IMG/VR virus record: IMGVR_UViG_3300042309_002885
Coordinates: 1-64,000 of that record
Direction: 5' to 3' (one strand)
DNA from: a virus
Length of the DNA stretch: 64,000 bases
In this document: piece after piece, positions 30,522 through 47,109 of the stretch
How positions within the stretch are numbered: position 1 is the first letter of the stretch
Layout of the letters: each line of letters begins with the position of its first letter
The notes under the pieces: model-generated
Database searches by the model: none
What the model was told of the DNA's origin: nothing
What the model saw: only the letters and a program-made list of their open reading frames with translations
Program-made: the position numbers and the translations under genes

Positions 30522-31172
30522 ATGACAGTAAAGTTTATCGATAAGATGGGCTCAGACCTATCTGTAGTTAACGCTGCAAGAGTTTCTTTCGATAAGGTAT
30601 CTGAGCTTAATACAGATGGATCTCTTAAATCGAGTGATGAAAGACTTATTGCATTTCTAGCTAGAGAGAATCACTGGACTCCTTTTGGGCATGCGTCACT
30701 ATCATTTCATATTAAAGCTCCTATATTTGTAGCAAGACAGCTAGTTAAGCATACGGTTGGGCTTGTCTGGAACGAAGTAAGTAGGAGATATGTAGATTCA
30801 ACTCCTGAATTCTACGTTCCTAATAAGTGGCGTAGACGTAATGAGGATAAGAAGCAAGGATCTCATGAAGATCAGTTTGTTGATCTTAGTTATTCGGAAG
30901 AGCTTACTATTAATGGTATTATGGATAATGCTCTTAATATGTATCAAGGCTTGCTTGATATTGGTGTTTGCGCTGAACAAGCTAGAATGATTCTTCCGCA
31001 AAATACTATGACAGAGTGGTATTGGTCTGGTTCACTTCACGCTTTTGCTAGAGTGTGTAATCTTAGATGTAAGAAAGATACTCAGAAAGAAACGCGCAAC
31101 ATAGCGGATCAAATTGACAATATAGCGCGTGAACATTTCCCTGTTAGTTGGAAGTATCTTAGATCTCATTAA
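30522..31172 (+). CDS. thyX: Flavin-dependent thymidylate synthase
   Basis: 216 residues. ThyX uses FAD, NADPH and methylene-tetrahydrofolate to convert dUMP to dTMP. The ThyX motif appears as KHTVGLVWNEVSRRY (position of the canonical RHRxxSxNExSxR), followed by PNKWR. LVKHT and the ILPQNTMTEW helix are typical. K and T replacing the two leading arginines is a variant I associate with phage ThyX proteins. It supplies dTMP together with nrdA and nrdB downstream. Confidence 0.9.
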   Translation: MTVKFIDKMGSDLSVVNAARVSFDKVSELNTDGSLKSSDERLIAFLARENHWTPFGHASLSFHIKAPIFVARQLVKHTVGLVWNEVSRRYVDSTPEFYVPNKWRRRNEDKKQGSHEDQFVDLSYSEELTINGIMDNALNMYQGLLDIGVCAEQARMILPQNTMTEWYWSGSLHAFARVCNLRCKKDTQKETRNIADQIDNIAREHFPVSWKYLRSH

Positions 31173-32800: not shown

Positions 32801-33784
32801 ATGAGCGTTGTATGTATTTTCGATGAGCAGATTAGCCGTAAGCCTAACCAGTACCCGTGGACAGAGAAGTTCATAGAAGCAATGCATAACGGGTTTTGGA
32901 CTGATAAAGAATTCAGCTTTAAATCTGATATACAACAATTTAAAGTTGAGCTTACAGATCAGGAGCGTGAAATTATCGTACGTACACTCTCCGCGATTGG
33001 CCAGATCGAAGTTGCTGTAAAAACATTTTGGGCTAAGCTTGGTGAAAATTTACCTCATCCATCTCTACAAGATCTTGGCTATGTTATGGCTAACGTAGAA
33101 GTTATTCATAATAGTGCTTATGAAAGATTGTTAAGTGTTTTGGATTTAGAAGATATTTTCGAAGAGAACTTAAAGCTCGAGTGGATTCAAGGTAGAGTAA
33201 AATATTTACGTAAGTATACTCATAAGTTCTATAAAGATTCGAAGAAGCAATATCTTTATGCATTAATATTGTTTACTCTCTTTGTTGAGAACGTTTCCCT
33301 GTTTTCGCAATTCTACGTTATTAACTGGTTCGCTAGATTTAAGAACGTACTTAAAGATACAGACCAACAGGTAAAATATACACGCAATGAAGAGAATATT
33401 CACGCTCTAGTAGGTATCCAAATTATTAACACTATTCGTGAAGAGCTTCCTGAATTGTTTGATGATGAGCTTGAAGAACGTATAGCACACGAGGCGGAGG
33501 AGGCTTATAAATCAGAAGCTAAGATTGTTGATTGGATGGTTAACGGTATCAATGAACCGGGTCTTTCTGCGCCTATCCTTAAAGAGTTTATTAAGAATAG
33601 AATTAACGAATCACTTCAACAAATTAAATTCAAGCCAGTTTTCGAAGTAGATAAAGAGGTATTAGAGTCTACCATATGGTTCGAGGAAGAGCTACTCGGT
33701 AATAATATGGCAGATTTCTTCCATACAAGACCAACTGAGTACGCTAAGAAGAATCAATCATTTGACGAAGACGATCTTTTTTAA
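32801..33784 (+). CDS. nrdB: Ribonucleotide reductase, beta (radical) subunit
   Basis: 327 residues. Ferritin-like fold with the di-iron ligands in EVIHNSAY (E, H and the radical tyrosine in the E. coli Y122 position) and in NEENIHALVG. It generates the tyrosyl radical used by the alpha subunit to reduce ribonucleotides. The C-terminal SFDEDDLF is the acidic tail that docks on the alpha subunit. Four bases separate its stop from nrdA. Confidence 0.9.
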   Translation: MSVVCIFDEQISRKPNQYPWTEKFIEAMHNGFWTDKEFSFKSDIQQFKVELTDQEREIIVRTLSAIGQIEVAVKTFWAKLGENLPHPSLQDLGYVMANVEVIHNSAYERLLSVLDLEDIFEENLKLEWIQGRVKYLRKYTHKFYKDSKKQYLYALILFTLFVENVSLFSQFYVINWFARFKNVLKDTDQQVKYTRNEENIHALVGIQIINTIREELPELFDDELEERIAHEAEEAYKSEAKIVDWMVNGINEPGLSAPILKEFIKNRINESLQQIKFKPVFEVDKEVLESTIWFEEELLGNNMADFFHTRPTEYAKKNQSFDEDDLF

Positions 33785-33788
33785 TTTT

Positions 33789-35435
33789 ATGCGAGAATAT
33801 AAATGGCTTAACAAGGACTCAAGAAAGTTCCTCGAAAGAGGATATTTAGAGGAAAATGAAACACCAGAACAAAGAATACAAGATATAGCTGATAGAGCAC
33901 AGCAGCTATTAGGTATTGATAGCTTCTCTGATAAGTTTCATGATTACATGGCGAGGGGATTCTATTCTTTAGCGTCTCCTATTTGGTCAAACTTTGGTCG
34001 TAAAAGAGGCTTACCTATTTCTTGCTTTGGTAGTTTCATTCCTGATGACATGGAGCAGATTCTGTATAAGATGGGTGAGATTGGAACTATGTCAAAAGTA
34101 GGTGGGGGTACTTCAGCTTACTTTGGAGCTGTGAGAGGTCGTGGAGCTCCTATTTCTTCAGGTGGTAATGCAACAGGTGTACATCATCAACTGACTGTAT
34201 TTGATTCTCTTATCAACTACGTATCACAAGGGAATGTACGTAGAGGTTCATTTGCTGCTTATCTACCTATTGATCATCCAGACATTGAAGAGTTTCTTAA
34301 GATTAGATCAGAAGGCAATTCAATTCAAGATCTCTCTATTGGCGTTTGCGTTTCGGATGAATGGATGAAGTCCATGGTTGATGGAGATAGGGATAAGCGT
34401 AAGCTTTGGGGTGCAGTAATTAAGAAGCGATTCGAGTCTGGGTATCCATATATCTTTTTCTCTGATAACGCTAACAACCAAGCACCACAGATGTATAAAG
34501 ATAAAGGATTAAAGATTAACGCTTCTAATCTTTGTACTGAGATCTTTCTCTCTACTAGCGATGATGAATCGTTTGTATGTGATCTTTCATCTCTCAATCT
34601 TGAAAAATGGGATGAGATTGCTGAAACAGATGCTGTAGAAACTCTCGTTTACTTTCTTGATGCTGTCATGTCTGAGTTTATTGAAAAGACAGATGGTGTT
34701 AAGTTTATGGAAGCTCCACGTAAGTTCGCTATTAATCAGCGCGCGTTAGGTGTAGGTATTCTTGGATGGCACTCATTACTTCAATCGAAAATGGTATCGT
34801 TTGAATCAATGGAAGCTAAGATGATGAATAATGAGATCTGGCACTCTATTAGAGAGAAAGCAGATAAAGCAACAGCTGAGTTAGCTTCAAAATTTGGTGA
34901 ACCACCAATGCTTGAAGGTTATAATAGAAGAAACTCTACTACTCTAGCTGTAGCGCCTACGACATCAAGTTCGTTTATTTTAGGCCAAGTTTCACCATCC
35001 ATCGAACCTCTTAATAGTAATTACTTCGTTAAGGACCTTGCTAAGGGTAAGTTCACATATAAGAATCCTTATCTAGAGAAGCTTCTCAAAGAAAAAGGTA
35101 AGAACGATCAAGAAACATGGAAGGATATTCTCACACATGGAGGTTCGGTTCAACATCTAGATTTTCTTACTAAAGAAGAAAGAGATGTGTTTAAGACGTT
35201 CGGTGAAATCTCTCAGAAAGAAATTGTTATTCAAGCAGCACAGAGACAGAAGCATATCGATCAAGGGCAATCGCTCAATCTTATGATTCCACCTACTGCT
35301 AAGCCGAAAGAGGTAAATGAACTTCTTATCTTCGCTTGGGAGCAAGGTATTAAGTCTCTTTATTACCAGCGTTCGGCTAATCCTTCACAGGAGCTAGCTA
35401 GGTCTATTATGACTTGCTCTACCTGCGAAGCTTGA
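33789..35435 (+). CDS. nrdA: Ribonucleotide reductase, alpha (catalytic) subunit
   Basis: 548 residues from ATG 33789. Class I alpha subunit: thiyl-radical pair region CFGSFIPDD, active-site NLCTEI (N, C, E), radical-transfer region SLYYQRS (two tyrosines), and a C-terminal CSTC redox pair. The N-terminal ATP-cone is absent, so dATP feedback through that domain is not expected, and the protein is short compared with bacterial NrdA (about 750). The longer frame from 33762 overlaps nrdB. Confidence 0.9.
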   Translation: MREYKWLNKDSRKFLERGYLEENETPEQRIQDIADRAQQLLGIDSFSDKFHDYMARGFYSLASPIWSNFGRKRGLPISCFGSFIPDDMEQILYKMGEIGTMSKVGGGTSAYFGAVRGRGAPISSGGNATGVHHQLTVFDSLINYVSQGNVRRGSFAAYLPIDHPDIEEFLKIRSEGNSIQDLSIGVCVSDEWMKSMVDGDRDKRKLWGAVIKKRFESGYPYIFFSDNANNQAPQMYKDKGLKINASNLCTEIFLSTSDDESFVCDLSSLNLEKWDEIAETDAVETLVYFLDAVMSEFIEKTDGVKFMEAPRKFAINQRALGVGILGWHSLLQSKMVSFESMEAKMMNNEIWHSIREKADKATAELASKFGEPPMLEGYNRRNSTTLAVAPTTSSSFILGQVSPSIEPLNSNYFVKDLAKGKFTYKNPYLEKLLKEKGKNDQETWKDILTHGGSVQHLDFLTKEERDVFKTFGEISQKEIVIQAAQRQKHIDQGQSLNLMIPPTAKPKEVNELLIFAWEQGIKSLYYQRSANPSQELARSIMTCSTCEA

Positions 35436-39329: not shown

Positions 39330-40133
39330 ATGCTTATATCGCACGAAACTCCTATTAGCTTTTTATCAAAGTCACACGAATATAATGATTACGACTACGC
39401 GTTAGTGCATTTATTTGAAACGCAACCAGAATATTATTCATTCTTTAAGTCGTGTGTCCTTCAAGGTCGTGAAGTTTTACTCGATAACTCAATCTTTGAA
39501 CTTAAAGAAGCATTCGACCATGTAAAGTATGCAAAATATATTGATGAGCTCAAACCTACATATTTTATCGTACCGGATGTTCTTGAAGACTCACGAGGTA
39601 CAATGGATTCGTATTTGAAGTTTAAGAGCGCTTACTTTAATTTACCAGGGCTGTGGATAGGTGCTGTTCAAGGAAAAACGTACCAAGATATTGTTGAGTG
39701 TTATAAATTTATGTCAAAGAATGCAGATTATATTGCAATTTCTTTTGACTATTCATGGTACCAGTTAATAGGTATTTCTAATAGCAGCGATCCTAATTTA
39801 GCTAGACTTGAACGCATGTGCTCGGGCCGTCAAAAATTAATCTCTATGCTACAAACAGATGGTATTTGGAATTATGAAAAGCCACACCACCTGCTAGGAG
39901 CGTCTCTTGCTCGTGAATTTAGCGCTTATAAACATGTTACGAGTATTAGATCTTGCGATACATCTAACCCGGTTGTAGCAGGTATTCTAGGAAAGAGATA
40001 CATACGGGGTATAGGCCTTTACGAAAAACCTAGTGTAATGCTTGCCGATCTAATTAATCACGACGTTACTGAGGAAGAAGAAATCGACATCTGGCACAAT
40101 GTTTATGAATTTAAAAGAATTTGTATGTCATGA
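39330..40133 (+). CDS. DpdA-like guanine transglycosylase (DNA 7-deazaguanine insertion)
   Basis: 267 residues resembling the TGT/DpdA fold. Candidate active-site parts: LLDNSIFELKEAF (D52), FIVPDVLEDS (D83), GAVQGKTYQDI (VQG, as in TGT base recognition) and ISFDYSWYQ (D140). The C-terminal RSCDTSNPVVAG also resembles phage DpdA proteins. DpdA swaps guanine in DNA for a 7-deazaguanine base, protecting against restriction. Its stop overlaps the next start (ATGA), and QueF is three genes downstream, which is strong context. A tRNA-type TGT is less likely because of size and neighbours. Confidence 0.65.
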   Translation: MLISHETPISFLSKSHEYNDYDYALVHLFETQPEYYSFFKSCVLQGREVLLDNSIFELKEAFDHVKYAKYIDELKPTYFIVPDVLEDSRGTMDSYLKFKSAYFNLPGLWIGAVQGKTYQDIVECYKFMSKNADYIAISFDYSWYQLIGISNSSDPNLARLERMCSGRQKLISMLQTDGIWNYEKPHHLLGASLAREFSAYKHVTSIRSCDTSNPVVAGILGKRYIRGIGLYEKPSVMLADLINHDVTEEEEIDIWHNVYEFKRICMS

Positions 40134-40693
40134 AATGGGCAGCATTATTCTCACAAACTGGTTCTGAGATTTGCAATCTTTCAGAAAAACTAGGTCATTA
40201 TCCTGATCTAGTTATTTCAGATAATACTAATGAAGCTAATATAGTAGATCCAAGAATTGAACTTAACTGTAAAAAGCTTCTTTGGAGAAAGTATAAGGGA
40301 TTAACGAAAGAAGAAAAGCTCGATTATTATAGAAAATATCTTCAAGGGTATGATATTATAACGCTCCACGGCTGGCTTAACATTGTACCTGCAGATATAT
40401 GTAATGAATTTAATATATACAACGGTCACCCTGGTCTTATTAATTACTTTCCAGAGTTAAAAGGTAAGAATCCGCAGGTACGAGCTTGGGATAATATTAG
40501 CAATTATCAATTTGTAGGTAGTGTTATTCATAAAGTTACACCAGGAGTAGATGAAGGTCCTATTATTTGTTATAGTAAGGTAAGTTCAAATTGTTGTATT
40601 GGTTTAGATTCTACTTTCGGTAGTTTAAAACAAACATCGCTTGATTCTTGGGTTGATTTCTTTAACAATAAACGATATAATATTATATGCTAA
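40130..40693 (+). CDS. Formyltransferase (GART-like), candidate DpdL
   Basis: 187 residues from ATG 40130. Formyl-transferase fold with the catalytic trio in place: NGHPG (N98, H100) and VTPGVDEGPI (D141), as in PurN and Fmt. The N-terminal Rossmann region is short. Phage formyltransferases named DpdL are reported to act on 7-aminomethyl-7-deazaguanine in DNA; the adjacency to DpdA-like and QueF genes fits formylation of preQ1. A role in purine or Met-tRNA metabolism is the alternative. Confidence 0.6.
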   Translation: MKWAALFSQTGSEICNLSEKLGHYPDLVISDNTNEANIVDPRIELNCKKLLWRKYKGLTKEEKLDYYRKYLQGYDIITLHGWLNIVPADICNEFNIYNGHPGLINYFPELKGKNPQVRAWDNISNYQFVGSVIHKVTPGVDEGPIICYSKVSSNCCIGLDSTFGSLKQTSLDSWVDFFNNKRYNIIC

Positions 40694-41292
40694 TTAGCTT
40701 TTCGGGAGCACAAAGTACGGGAAAAAGTACATTACTAAAGATGTGGCAGGAAGCTATACCTGAGTGGGATTATATTCCTGAAGTTACTAGATTGGTTAAA
40801 CGTGAATATGATTTACCAATTAACGAAGATGGTAATGATCTTACTCAGACAATGATAATGGGCGAGCATTTGCGTAATGCTTTTATAAAGAGAGAGAAAC
40901 ATGCAATTTTAGATAGATGTTCTCTTGATGGGCTTGTATATACACATTGGCTTTGTGATAATAAAAAAGTATCTGTGGGTGCGTATTCGCATGCTAGATA
41001 TGTATTTGATAATACTATCGATAAGTATGATCTTATTATATATACATCACCGGAAGATGTTCCTGTTGTAGATGATGGTGAGAGAAGTATTAATATAAAA
41101 TTTAGAGAAGAAATTATTGAATTGTTTGAACAATATCTTATTACTATTCCTGAACGAAAGCTTCTTAGGGTTAGAGGTGATGTAAGGCAGCGTATTGATC
41201 AGATAGGACTTGCATTTGAGTATATCGGCATGGGTAACTACAGTCCTCTTACCTTTAATAGATCTTTTTTTCGTCCTATCTCCTGTAATTAA
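40687..41292 (+). CDS. P-loop ATPase/kinase of the NadR-like (AAA_28) type
   Basis: 201 residues. Walker A GAQSTGKST (7-15); IPEVTRLVKREY and ILDRCSLDGLVYTHW match the NadR kinase or Ttd14-like family, which phosphorylates nucleosides or similar ligands. Its start overlaps the formyltransferase end. It could be a nucleoside or nucleotide kinase serving DNA modification, but the substrate cannot be told. Confidence 0.65.
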   Translation: MLISFSGAQSTGKSTLLKMWQEAIPEWDYIPEVTRLVKREYDLPINEDGNDLTQTMIMGEHLRNAFIKREKHAILDRCSLDGLVYTHWLCDNKKVSVGAYSHARYVFDNTIDKYDLIIYTSPEDVPVVDDGERSINIKFREEIIELFEQYLITIPERKLLRVRGDVRQRIDQIGLAFEYIGMGNYSPLTFNRSFFRPISCN

Positions 41293-41326
41293 CTTGCAGA
41301 ACAAACATATTAATATAAAATAAATT

Positions 41327-42268
41327 ATGGCATCAAAAACGAAACTAGATAATTCGAATATCAGCAAACACCTTGGTCAGACGTCACAATATAAATCGAC
41401 TTACGATCCATCGCTCTTGGTACGCGAACCAAGACAATCAAATAGAACGCACCTTAATATTCAAGATGATAATCTCCCTTTCATCGGCAACGATACCTGG
41501 AATGCGTATGAGGTGTCTGGTTTGACAGATACGGGGTTACCTGTAACAGGTGTCGCTAAAATTGTCTATCCATGTACAAGTAAGTATATTGTTGAGTCAA
41601 AGTCTATTAAGCTTTACTTTAATAGCTTCAACATGACTAAGCTAGGCGAAACATCAGATGAAGTACGTTCGGTTATTTCGCGTAGAGCTAGTGTAGATCT
41701 TTCAAGACTCCTGGAAACAGATGTACAGGTTCATGTATTTAGTAATATATCTATATTAGAAGATGCAGAGTGTGCTATTAATGAGTGGGGTCATGATGTT
41801 AGTAAGCATAAAGGAGCAACATATGTTACACTCGAAGAAGTGTATCCTGTTGAGGGTGTAGAATTTAATACATATATTGAAACGCCTAAACTTCTTAGGG
41901 TGCTAGATTCAGAAGTTGCAGAAGTATACTATCATAGTGCTTTACTTAAATCAAACTGTAGAGTTACTTCGCAGCCTGATTGGGGCGATGTGTATATTTA
42001 TATGAAAGGAGACAAAACTGTAGATCCTATTTCCCTCCTACAATATATTGTTTCGTTTAGAGATGAATGTCACTTTCATGAAGAAATTTGCGAAACTATT
42101 TATAAAAGACTATACGACGCGATTAAACCTGATGAGCTTTGTGTGAGGTGTTTATATGCAAGACGTGGTGGTATTGATATTAACCCGGAACGTGCTTCTA
42201 GTAAAAGTCTGCTTCACCCTACTTTGAGTGACGAAACAGTACCGTATATTAAAACCCCCAAGCAATAA
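41327..42268 (+). CDS. queF: QueF-type 7-cyano-7-deazaguanine reductase
   Basis: 313 residues of the two-domain (YqfB-type, E. coli-like) QueF. Landmarks: YDPSLL near 26, DNLPFIGNDTW near 48, ESKSIKLYFNSFNM (90-103), LLKSNCRVTSQPDWG with C211 and D218 at the catalytic positions, and YARRGGIDINP near the end. QueF reduces preQ0 to preQ1 with NADPH. No FolE, QueD, QueE or QueC is seen, so preQ0 would come from the host or from elsewhere in the phage. A lone queF beside DpdA-like and formyltransferase genes points to DNA rather than tRNA modification. Confidence 0.9.
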   Translation: MASKTKLDNSNISKHLGQTSQYKSTYDPSLLVREPRQSNRTHLNIQDDNLPFIGNDTWNAYEVSGLTDTGLPVTGVAKIVYPCTSKYIVESKSIKLYFNSFNMTKLGETSDEVRSVISRRASVDLSRLLETDVQVHVFSNISILEDAECAINEWGHDVSKHKGATYVTLEEVYPVEGVEFNTYIETPKLLRVLDSEVAEVYYHSALLKSNCRVTSQPDWGDVYIYMKGDKTVDPISLLQYIVSFRDECHFHEEICETIYKRLYDAIKPDELCVRCLYARRGGIDINPERASSKSLLHPTLSDETVPYIKTPKQ

Positions 42269-44589: not shown

Positions 44590-47109
44590 ATGAGTATTCG
44601 TTACGGAAATAAAGTTGGACCGTTAGTCTCACGTAAGTCTTCTTTTTTTAAAAAGGATAGATTTGATCGACTGCGTATTAAACAACCATCACCTACTAGC
44701 TCAACATCAAGCACTTGGACACGTCCAGCTGATTGGCTAACAATGCCGACTATAATATCTTCAGAGCAAAAAATAGCTTTGTTGATGCCAGTGTTTCCGC
44801 AACAATCTAACTTTCTCGCTTTTACAATATCTGGAGCATATACAGTTGATTGGGGTGATGGTGTAACAGAAAATGTTGCATCTGGTGTTAAGGCTCAACA
44901 TGAATACTCTTATACCGACCCAGATTTAAATGCCACCGTTACAAGTGATGGTTATAAAATGGCAGTTGTAGTCATTACTCCTCAAGCTGGTCAAAATATA
45001 ACAAGTGTAGACTTTAACCAAAAATATGCATTAACGGGATCTACATTTCCTGATTCTTCTCCTATATTAGAAATAGTTTTATCTTGCCCAAGTTTAACAG
45101 GTTTAACTCTTGGTAGTGCAACTGTTGCTTCTGTTTTCTGTAAAAATTTAGTTAGTTTTACTGGAGTTAATATGGGATTATTAACTGACTTAACTAATTC
45201 ATTTGCAAATTTAGTTTCATTAAAAAATATATCCCTCAGCGGTACTACTAACGTTACTAATATGACAAGTGCATTTAGTGGTTGTTCTAGTCTTATAAGT
45301 GTATCATTGTCTGATACAGGAAGTGTTACTAATATGACTAGTATGTTTAATAATTGCAGGTCTCTTAATACTGTACCATTATTCAATACAGCAGCTGTTA
45401 CTAATATGAGTGGTATGTTTAGTGGTTGCTCTTCTCTTACAAGTGTTCCACTATTCAATACAGGGGCTGTTACTAGTATGAATAGTATGTTTAGTAGTTG
45501 TACTTCTCTTACAAGCGTACCACTGTTTAATACAGCAGCTGTTACTAATATGAGTTCTATGTTTAGTGGTTGCTCTTCTCTTACAAGTGTTCCACTATTC
45601 AATACAGGGGCTGTTACTAATATGAATAGTATGTTTGCCTCTTGTTCCCGTCTTCAGACTGTACCATTATTTAACACGCAAAATGTTACTACTATGGGAG
45701 GTAATATTCCACCAGAAGGAATGTTTTTTAGCTGTAGATCACTTACAAGTGTACCACTATTCAATACAGCAGCTGTTACTAGTATGGGTAGTATGTTTTT
45801 TAGTTGTACTTCTCTTACAAGTGTACCGCTTTTTAATACAATAGCTGTTACTAATATGGTTAGTATGTTTAGTAGTTGTACTTCTCTTACAACTGTACCA
45901 CTGTTTAATACAGCAGCTGTTACTAATATGGGTAGTATGTTTTTTAGTTGTACTTCTCTTACAAGTGTACCGTTATTCAATACAGGGGCTGTGCAATTCA
46001 CGAGTACTATGTTTAATAGTTGTACTTCTCTTACAACTGTACCACTGTTTAATACAGCAGCTGTTACTAGTATGAATAGTATGTTTAATAGTTGTACTTC
46101 TCTTACAACTGTACCGTTATTCAATACAGGGGCTGTTACTGATATGAATAGTATGTTTAGTGGTTGCTCTTCTCTTACAACTGTACCACTGTTTAATACA
46201 GCAGCTGTTACTAATATGGGTGGTATGTTTAGTAGTTGTACTTCTCTTACAACTGTACCACTGTTTAATACAGCAGCTGTTACTAATATGGTTAGTATGT
46301 TTAGTGGTTGCTCTTCTCTTACAAGTGTACCGTTATTCAATACAGCAGCTGTTACTAATATGAGTTCTATGTTTAGTGGTTGCTCTTCTCTTACAACTGT
46401 ACCGTTATTAATTTCAGGTGCTGGAACAAGTACAGGAAAGTTTGGTAGTATTTTTACAAGTTGTATATCACTTACAAGAGCAGCATTAAGCGGATCTGAA
46501 TATTCAATAAGTTATAGTGGTTGTAAATTATCAAAAGAAGAATTAGAATCTATATTCAATTATCTAGACACAATAGGTGCTGCTTCTCAAACAATAACAG
46601 TAACAAACAATTGGGGAGCGCCGACACCTGTAACTCTTACAGGAACTACAACAGCTGGTAGCACAACAATAACAATGGCAAACACAACTGGTATTGCTGT
46701 AGGTATGCAAATTACTGGTACTGGTTCCCCTCTTACAACAGCAAGAGCTGTTACATTTACTGATGCTGGCGATCTGGTCAACTTAGCATCACATGGTTTA
46801 AGTAATGGAGATGAAGTTTCTTTTGCAACTATAGTAACAACGACTGGTATTGTTACTAATAGAATTTATTATGTAGTCAATGCTACAGCTGGAACATTTC
46901 AAGTAGCAGCAACTCTAGGTGGTCCAGCACTAGCATTAACGATAAACGGTTCTGGAACCTTACGCTATCGTACACAGGTTGTATCAATTAACCCCAACGT
47001 AAGCGTCACAGTATCACGACAAATGGCTGCGGGGGGTGCAAATAGTTTAACATTTAGACAATTAAGAACTGGAACAGCCCTATTAAAAGGCTGGGCAGTA
47101 ACAGCATAA
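44590..47109 (+). CDS. BspA-type leucine-rich repeat tail adhesin
   Basis: 839 residues. An N-terminal domain (about 65-140, with SGAYTVDWGDGVTENV, PKD-like), then 16 repeats of 24 residues of the BspA/DUF285 kind (VTNMSSMFSGCSSLTSVPLF) at about 222-611. The C-terminal module has HGLSNGDEVSF and YYVVNATAGTFQV, common in tail fibres. One repeat carries a six-residue insert (GGNIPPEG). Near-identical repeats allow copy-number change, which may adjust receptor binding. BspA repeats occur in adhesins of bacteria and protists, but I know of few in phages. Confidence 0.8.
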   Translation: MSIRYGNKVGPLVSRKSSFFKKDRFDRLRIKQPSPTSSTSSTWTRPADWLTMPTIISSEQKIALLMPVFPQQSNFLAFTISGAYTVDWGDGVTENVASGVKAQHEYSYTDPDLNATVTSDGYKMAVVVITPQAGQNITSVDFNQKYALTGSTFPDSSPILEIVLSCPSLTGLTLGSATVASVFCKNLVSFTGVNMGLLTDLTNSFANLVSLKNISLSGTTNVTNMTSAFSGCSSLISVSLSDTGSVTNMTSMFNNCRSLNTVPLFNTAAVTNMSGMFSGCSSLTSVPLFNTGAVTSMNSMFSSCTSLTSVPLFNTAAVTNMSSMFSGCSSLTSVPLFNTGAVTNMNSMFASCSRLQTVPLFNTQNVTTMGGNIPPEGMFFSCRSLTSVPLFNTAAVTSMGSMFFSCTSLTSVPLFNTIAVTNMVSMFSSCTSLTTVPLFNTAAVTNMGSMFFSCTSLTSVPLFNTGAVQFTSTMFNSCTSLTTVPLFNTAAVTSMNSMFNSCTSLTTVPLFNTGAVTDMNSMFSGCSSLTTVPLFNTAAVTNMGGMFSSCTSLTTVPLFNTAAVTNMVSMFSGCSSLTSVPLFNTAAVTNMSSMFSGCSSLTTVPLLISGAGTSTGKFGSIFTSCISLTRAALSGSEYSISYSGCKLSKEELESIFNYLDTIGAASQTITVTNNWGAPTPVTLTGTTTAGSTTITMANTTGIAVGMQITGTGSPLTTARAVTFTDAGDLVNLASHGLSNGDEVSFATIVTTTGIVTNRIYYVVNATAGTFQVAATLGGPALALTINGSGTLRYRTQVVSINPNVSVTVSRQMAAGGANSLTFRQLRTGTALLKGWAVTA
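45253..46422 (+). repeat. Sixteen 72-bp in-frame tandem repeats
   Basis: Each unit encodes one BspA LRR of 24 residues; a single unit is 90 bp. Units differ mostly at a few codons (GTTACTAATATG core). Antisense ORFs across this block are mirror artefacts. Confidence 0.9.

What the first reader, a model, noticed from the sequence alone, without database searches (positions are those of the whole stretch)
39330..42268. Compact 7-deazaguanine DNA-modification cassette with a formyltransferase
Four genes in a row: a DpdA-like transglycosylase, a formyltransferase with N-x-H...D catalytic residues, a NadR-like P-loop kinase, and a clear QueF. The first three overlap by 4-7 bases. QueF makes preQ1; a DpdL-type formyltransferase would give formylated preQ1 in DNA, one of the modifications reported from phages. 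The kinase is an extra component I cannot place. No preQ0 synthesis genes are visible, so the substrate would be from the host or another region.
Basis: partly seen in the sequence, partly recalled or inferred. Interest (0 to 1): 0.82.

Follow-up and report, generated by a model that had tools for sequence, protein, structure and literature searches.

The report
Phage preQ1 DNA-modification cassette with kinase
A virus of bacteria carries a complete set of genes to make a modified guanine (probably preQ1 or its formyl form) and put it in its DNA, and a kinase thought to be an odd extra is a fixed part of this gene set in hundreds of related viruses, which raises the question whether the modified base is loaded into nucleotides before the DNA is copied.

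Summary
The four genes at 39330-42268 are real and correctly placed. The first product has the tRNA-guanine transglycosylase fold (AlphaFold pLDDT 95; the 50 best PDB matches listed are all TGTs) and is 41-48% identical to proteins of Flavobacterium phage immuto, annotated DpdA, and Campylobacter phage CP220. The second is a PurN-like formyltransferase with N98-x-H100...D141, the third a dNK/TMPK/NadR-type kinase, the fourth a bimodular QueF. Immuto has the same four genes in the same order. Two corrections. The preQ0 genes are not missing: FolE, QueD, QueE and QueC lie at 69.6-91.2 kb of the same 122-kb virus record. The kinase is not an extra: it is present at 122 of 128 loci of this DpdA type (5 of the 6 exceptions are cut by contig ends) and at 0 of 26 control loci of other DpdA types; four kinase families fill the place, including a T4-type dNMP kinase; one relative has a formyltransferase-kinase fusion. 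Best reading: a phage-encoded dPreQ1/formyl-dPreQ1 pathway in which a dedicated kinase handles a deoxynucleotide. Whether the exchange occurs on DNA or on dGMP is undecided and directly testable. The formyltransferase name DpdL is, from memory, wrong (DpdN).

The parts
39330..40133 (+). DpdA-like guanine transglycosylase (short type, ~DpdA3; 267 aa)
   Evidence: Model pLDDT 95, the 50 best PDB matches listed all TGT, best E 6e-8; D52, D83, Q114-G115, H187-L-L-G and D210 invariant in 37 homologues and placed like TGT D102, D156, Q203, the YLMG strand and D280 by motif (inference); 41-48% identical to immuto and CP220
40130..40693 (+). PurN-like formyltransferase (probable preQ1/dpreQ1 formyltransferase, DpdN-like); overlaps dpdA by 4 b
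   Evidence: PF00551 over cut-off; N98-x-H100 and D141 invariant in 27 homologues; closest solved relatives are GAR transformylases, whose GTGSN loop aligns with QTGSE
40687..41292 (+). Nucleoside/nucleotide kinase of the dNK/TMPK/NadR class; overlaps the formyltransferase gene by 7 b
   Evidence: AAA_28 over cut-off; model matches dCK, TMPK and NadR-NRK; conserved Walker A, DR(C), DDGxRS lid and TQ motif; a kinase is present at 122 of 128 loci of this DpdA type
41327..42268 (+). Bimodular QueF, NADPH-dependent preQ0 nitrile reductase (makes preQ1)
   Evidence: TIGR03138 249.8 bits (E 4e-74, under the curated 293) and both Pfam halves over cut-off; QueF motif ESKSIKLY and C211, D218, H251, E252 conserved with immuto

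Best explanation
A tailed phage encodes a complete pathway that replaces guanine by preQ1, probably N-formyl-preQ1, in its DNA. Shown by homology: FolE, QueD, QueE and QueC (record 69.6-91.2 kb) make preQ0 from GTP; QueF reduces it to preQ1; a short TGT-fold enzyme exchanges guanine for it; a PurN-like formyltransferase adds formyl to the aminomethyl nitrogen. Inferred: the cassette's dedicated kinase phosphorylates a 5' position in the deoxynucleotide pool. I slightly favour the modified deoxynucleotide itself: DpdA would exchange the base on dGMP (or dG), the kinase would raise the product to the diphosphate, and the polymerase would build it in, which would explain near-complete replacement. 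The purpose would be protection from host nucleases. About 0.8 for 7-deazaguanine DNA modification, 0.65 for the formyl product, 0.4-0.45 for the nucleotide-level route.
For: TGT fold and motifs. Full preQ0 pathway in the same record plus QueF. Same four genes in the same order in immuto, next to queD, queE, folE. Formyltransferase found with QueF in 52 of 52 loci of the kinase scan, as expected if preQ1's amine is the acceptor; relatives without it keep DpdA-kinase-QueF. Kinase: 122 of 128 loci against 0 of 26 for other DpdA types (many loci are near-copies, 37 distinct DpdA clusters; control flanks mostly 4 kb, test flanks up to 8 kb). The 80 best kinase hits in viral contigs all lie beside QueF or DpdA. 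Different kinase families hold the place: AAA_28/TMPK-like, phrog_761 in Bacillus/Weizmannia phages, AAA_18 in Cellulophaga/Chryseobacterium phages, T4-type dNMP kinase phrog_139 (E 4e-36) in Aeromonas phage Ahp1. CP220 has DpdA and kinase without a neighbouring formyltransferase or QueF, so the kinase does not seem to depend on the 7-substituent. Natural formyltransferase-kinase fusion in L123. The formyltransferase keeps the position of the GAR transformylase phosphate loop.
Against: No dGTP-removing enzyme (MazG, PRA-PH, HD) was found in this record, although immuto and phiST have one near dpdA; the record may be incomplete. From memory, Crippen et al. 2019 found no dADG phosphates in infected Campylobacter cells, and Cui et al. 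2023 infer a post-replicative step for all DpdA. Protein charge does not separate this DpdA type from DNA-acting DpdA1. Rhizobium phage RHph_I1_18 has a distant relative without a recognised neighbouring kinase. No modification has been measured in this virus.
Confidence: 0.62

Rival explanations
1. Post-replicative route: DpdA exchanges guanine for preQ1 directly in the phage DNA, as inferred for DpdA1/2, the formyltransferase then acts on DNA-bound dpreQ1, and the kinase only supports the pools: recycling released guanine through (d)GMP or raising dNMPs from degraded host DNA.
For: Deletion of dpdA in CAjan removes dPreQ0, and 9g DpdA modifies DNA in E. coli (PMC6884629). Enzyme and fold are homologous to polymer-acting TGTs. 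immuto has a phosphoribosyltransferase in the block. Cui et al. 2023 propose it (memory).
Against: Salvage kinases are general phage genes, yet this one is tied to this DpdA type, absent from 26 control DpdA loci, replaced by non-orthologous kinases at the same place and once fused to the formyltransferase.
Confidence: 0.4
2. The kinase phosphorylates the modified base or its substituent in DNA, as 5-hmdU DNA kinases do in thymine hypermodification, to activate it for a further group.
For: Phage DNA-base kinases exist (established knowledge); the kinase is dedicated to the cassette.
Against: It occurs equally in CP220 (dADG from memory; no FTase/QueF nearby), in preQ1-type and in formyl-type cassettes, which share no common 7-substituent; the fold matches 5'-acting nucleoside and nucleotide kinases.
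Confidence: 0.08
3. The genes modify tRNA (preQ1 or queuosine) rather than DNA.
For: TGT fold; QueF also serves tRNA queuosine.
Against: About 100 residues shorter than bacterial TGT (267 against about 360) and without a conserved cysteine cluster for the Zn site; closest relatives belong to Campylobacter phages reported to have dADG in DNA (PMC6884629); formyl-preQ1 is not a tRNA base known to me.
Confidence: 0.05

Closest known systems
Flavobacterium phage vB_FspM_immuto (NC_055915) cassette
   Same: dpdA - formyltransferase - kinase ('thymidylate kinase') - queF in the same order; 47-49% identity for DpdA, FTase and QueF, 37% for the kinase; preQ0 genes in the genome
   Different: immuto has queD, queE and folE directly upstream and a MazG/PRA-PH gene beside dpdA; here the preQ0 genes lie 30-50 kb away and no MazG was found
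Campylobacter firehammerviruses CP220/CPt10 (dADG DNA, from memory complete replacement)
   Same: DpdA 41-45% identical, kinase immediately downstream
   Different: No formyltransferase or QueF beside dpdA, a different 7-deazaguanine; an HD + P-loop protein lies upstream
DpdA1 phages 9g, CAjan, Dp-1, Rosebush (dG+, dPreQ0, dPreQ1; at most about 32% of G in PMC6884629)
   Same: preQ0 pathway plus a TGT-like transglycosylase; Dp-1 also has QueF
   Different: DpdA not detectably related by sequence profile, no kinase nearby at the loci examined, no formyltransferase annotated beside it
Z-genome pathway (PurZ-MazZ-DatZ, PMC8342488) and T4 hydroxymethyl-dC pathway
   Same: Complete base replacement made at nucleotide level; in T4 a dNMP kinase is part of the path (established knowledge). 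Works-like comparison only
   Different: No homology in the base-altering enzyme; the nucleotide-level step is unproven here

Membership tests
DpdA (DNA guanine transglycosylase, TGT superfamily) | TGT (beta/alpha)8 fold | tested here: met
   Foldseek: the 50 best PDB matches listed are all TGT, best E 6e-8, TM 0.53-0.67 by query length
DpdA (DNA guanine transglycosylase, TGT superfamily) | Catalytic aspartates and base-binding Asp/Gln | tested here: met
   D52, D83, Q114, D210 invariant in 37 homologues; the Asp positions also in seven diverse members; match to TGT D102/D156/Q203/D280 by motif, not by superposition
DpdA1 (9g type) | Sequence-profile relation to 9g DpdA | tested here: not met
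   hhalign probability 0.6%, E 0.1
DpdA3 (CP220/immuto type; name from memory) | Homology to the CP220 and immuto proteins | tested here: met
   41-48% identity over 97-99% of the protein
DpdA3 (CP220/immuto type; name from memory) | Complete replacement of dG in DNA | not testable with these tools
   Needs LC-MS of virion DNA
Formyltransferase (PF00551; DpdN by memory) | N-x-H...D catalytic triad and family profile | tested here: met
   N98, H100, D141 invariant; PF00551 30.4 bits, cut-off 26.1
PurN (GAR transformylase) | TIGR00639 equivalog cut-off 150 bits | tested here: not met
   34.3 bits: a relative, not PurN
QueF | Nitrile reductase Cys/Asp and His-Glu, QueF motif | tested here: met
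   C211, D218, H251, E252, ESKSIKLY; TIGR03138 249.8 bits against cut-off 293
NadR ribosylnicotinamide kinase | TIGR01526 equivalog score | tested here: not met
   22.8 bits against 341; only AAA_28 superfamily membership is met
Deoxynucleoside/dNMP kinase (works like) | 5'-kinase activity on dN or dNMP | not testable with these tools
   Fold agrees: dCK, TMPK, NadR-NRK

The most novel reading that the evidence does not exclude
The short DpdA is not a DNA enzyme but exchanges guanine on dGMP (or deoxyguanosine), and with the dedicated kinase, in some phages a MazG-type dGTPase, and the formyltransferase acting on the nucleotide, forms a pre-replicative nucleotide pathway that yields complete guanine replacement: a TGT-fold enzyme working on monomers, in hundreds of viruses.
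Probability: 0.4. Interest if true: 0.85.

Novelty: new variant of a known kind. Interest (0 to 1): 0.62.

Why it matters
7-Deazaguanine DNA is a known phage defence, but how some phages replace every guanine is open: the working model is exchange on finished DNA. A kinase that is nearly always present with one DpdA type, absent with another, swapped between unrelated kinase families and once fused to the formyltransferase is an unused clue. It gives a two-enzyme test (DpdA plus kinase on dGMP/dG against DNA) that could split 7-deazaguanine systems into polymer-level and nucleotide-level classes, and it would offer a route to 7-deaza-dNTPs.

Tried and rejected
Net charge/pI of DpdA as a sign of DNA binding: 9g and R5C DpdA are as acidic as this family, so no use. 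MazG, PRA-PH, HD and phrog_139 dNMP kinase in this record: none found. HMMER of the DpdA profile against PDB sequences: no TGT found, only noise; the structure search succeeded. Viral-contig scans with the Bacillus-type and CC_R7 DpdA returned no relative. PF04055 missed QueE but NCBIfam QueE models matched it. A suspected DpdA-NadR fusion in Bacillus phage BSTP12 was a mislabel: that ORF is DpdA-sized and the kinase is the gene before it. Streptomyces phages with a similar kinase have no preQ0 or DpdA annotation within 10 kb, so the kinase superfamily is not exclusive at low identity. L123 at first looked like a locus without the kinase; it is a fusion. Key papers (Cui 2023, Crippen 2019) are not held.

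Full report
What is there. The four ORFs are at the stated places. The formyltransferase starts most likely at ATG 40130, as in relatives (MKWAALFSQTGSE...), giving a 4-base overlap with dpdA; the kinase overlaps it by 7 bases; QueF follows after 34 bases. The window is bases 1-64000 of a 121,925-base virus record with T4-type baseplate genes beside the cassette, ribonucleotide reductase, ThyX and a family B DNA polymerase.

Identity of the first gene. It has no significant curated family match, only phrog_19058 of unknown function. An AlphaFold model from 37 homologues has pLDDT 95, and the 50 best PDB matches listed are all tRNA-guanine transglycosylases. Invariant or nearly invariant D52-N-S, P-D83, Q114-G115, H187-L-L-G and D210 lie in the order of TGT D102, D156, Q203, the YLMG strand and D280; this residue matching is by motif, not by superposition. 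It is shorter than bacterial TGT (267 against about 360) and has no conserved cysteine cluster. It is not detectably related by sequence profile to 9g DpdA but is 41-48% identical to proteins of immuto (annotated DpdA) and of Campylobacter phage CP220, and more distantly related to proteins of Cellulophaga, Chryseobacterium, Bacillus, Weizmannia and Aeromonas phages. From memory this is the DpdA3 subfamily of Cui et al. 2023, which I could not read.

The other genes. The formyltransferase has N98-x-H100 and D141, invariant in 27 homologues; its closest solved relatives are GAR transformylases, whose substrate is a nucleotide with an aminomethyl group, and the phosphate-loop position (GTGSN in the human enzyme) aligns with QTGSE. 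QueF is bimodular with its catalytic residues. The kinase model (pLDDT 86) matches deoxycytidine kinase, thymidylate kinase and the ribosylnicotinamide kinase domain of NadR.

The pathway is complete. FolE (record 72833-73501 +), QueD (71173-71802 -), QueE (69604-70365 -) and QueC (90475-91224 +) are in the same record, outside the window.

The kinase. In viral contigs 514 candidate stretches encode a relative of this DpdA. Among 128 loci of this DpdA type examined, 122 carry a kinase nearby; five of the six others are cut by the contig end, and the sixth is Rhizobium phage RHph_I1_18. Among 26 loci of other DpdA types (9g, CAjan, Dp-1, phiSM, Hilltopfarm, R5C and 20 viral contigs) none does. 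Many loci are near-copies: the test set falls into about 37 DpdA clusters at 85% identity, and control flanks were often shorter (4 kb against up to 8 kb). Conversely, all of the 80 best kinase hits lie beside QueF (79) or DpdA (66), the rest having that side cut off or DpdA about 6 kb away. Three layouts occur: DpdA-FTase-kinase-QueF (window, immuto), DpdA-kinase-QueF without FTase, and FTase-kinase-QueF with DpdA about 6 kb upstream. The DpdA tree groups these layouts. CP220 and CPt10 have DpdA-kinase alone; CC_R7 has QueC-DpdA-kinase-DNA polymerase.

Other kinase families hold the place in other lineages: phrog_761 directly before DpdA in Bacillus BSTP12 and Weizmannia Youna2, AAA_18 directly before it in Cellulophaga phiST and Chryseobacterium MA9V-3, and a T4-type dNMP kinase (phrog_139, 4e-36) directly after it in Aeromonas Ahp1. 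In contig L123 the formyltransferase and kinase form one 362-residue protein directly after DpdA (kinase part 1.8e-44). immuto and phiST also have a MazG/PRA-PH pyrophosphohydrolase beside the block.

Interpretation. DpdA, QueF and the formyltransferase together predict dPreQ1 or formyl-dPreQ1 in DNA. A kinase shared by preQ1-, formyl-preQ1- and (by report) ADG-type phages is unlikely to depend on the 7-substituent; the shared substrate is most simply a 5' position in the nucleotide pool. A base-altering enzyme plus a dNMP kinase, with a dNTP pyrophosphohydrolase in some, is the pattern of known nucleotide-level base replacement (T4 hydroxymethyl-dC; the Z-genome with MazZ making dGMP, PMC8342488). 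The DpdA1/2 phages measured in PMC6884629 reach at most about 32% of G; those examined here lack the kinase. I therefore give the nucleotide-level reading about 0.4-0.45, against 0.4 for exchange on DNA with the kinase as pool support. Against it stand, from memory, the failure of Crippen et al. to find dADG phosphates and the post-replicative model of Cui et al., and here the absence of a dGTPase in this possibly incomplete record.

Novelty. The four-gene cassette exists in a public isolate, and formyl-preQ1 DNA has been reported from phages (memory), so this virus is in that sense a new member. What I did not find described in the papers I could read is the kinase as a near-obligate, exchangeable and sometimes fused component: the main DpdA paper held here does not contain the word kinase. 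I therefore call it a new variant; a reader with access to Cui et al. 2023 should check whether the kinase was noted there.

Noticed in passing
record G000:C1:68252-68983 (-), L006:4252-4983: A second P-loop kinase (243 aa), clustering with the cassette kinase in an all-against-all comparison, lies beside queE and queD in the same record.
   Followed up: partly
record G000:C1:69002-69604 (-), L006:5002-5604: Protein with an HNH region matching Cas9d/IscB nuclease models (E 2e-13 to 1e-8), between the second kinase and queE; probably a homing endonuclease.
   Followed up: no
record G000:C1:93053-93718 (+), L007:9053-9718: Class-II glutamine amidotransferase (GATase_6/7) 1.8 kb after queC, followed by a glycosyltransferase-like gene; could bear on an amidated 7-deazaguanine.
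   Followed up: no
L219:3030-3980 and L220:279-1262: In relatives of Cellulophaga phage phiST the small protein before the kinase (HRH motif, QueD-like look) appears fused to the kinase.
   Followed up: no
window 44590-47109: 839-aa protein of many near-identical ~25-residue repeats (SLTSVPLFNTAAVTNMxxMFxxC), with long mirror ORFs on the other strand; probable tail or adhesion protein.
   Followed up: no
window 32801-35435, 30522-31169: Phage ribonucleotide reductase pair (nrdB, nrdA) and ThyX lie 4-9 kb before the cassette; RNR is upstream of dpdA in many relatives too.
   Followed up: partly
Aeromonas phage Ahp1_CNU-2021, L216:4983-6966: DpdA-like gene, T4-type dNMP kinase and dCTP deaminase/dUTPase-like gene in a row, all annotated hypothetical.
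   Followed up: partly
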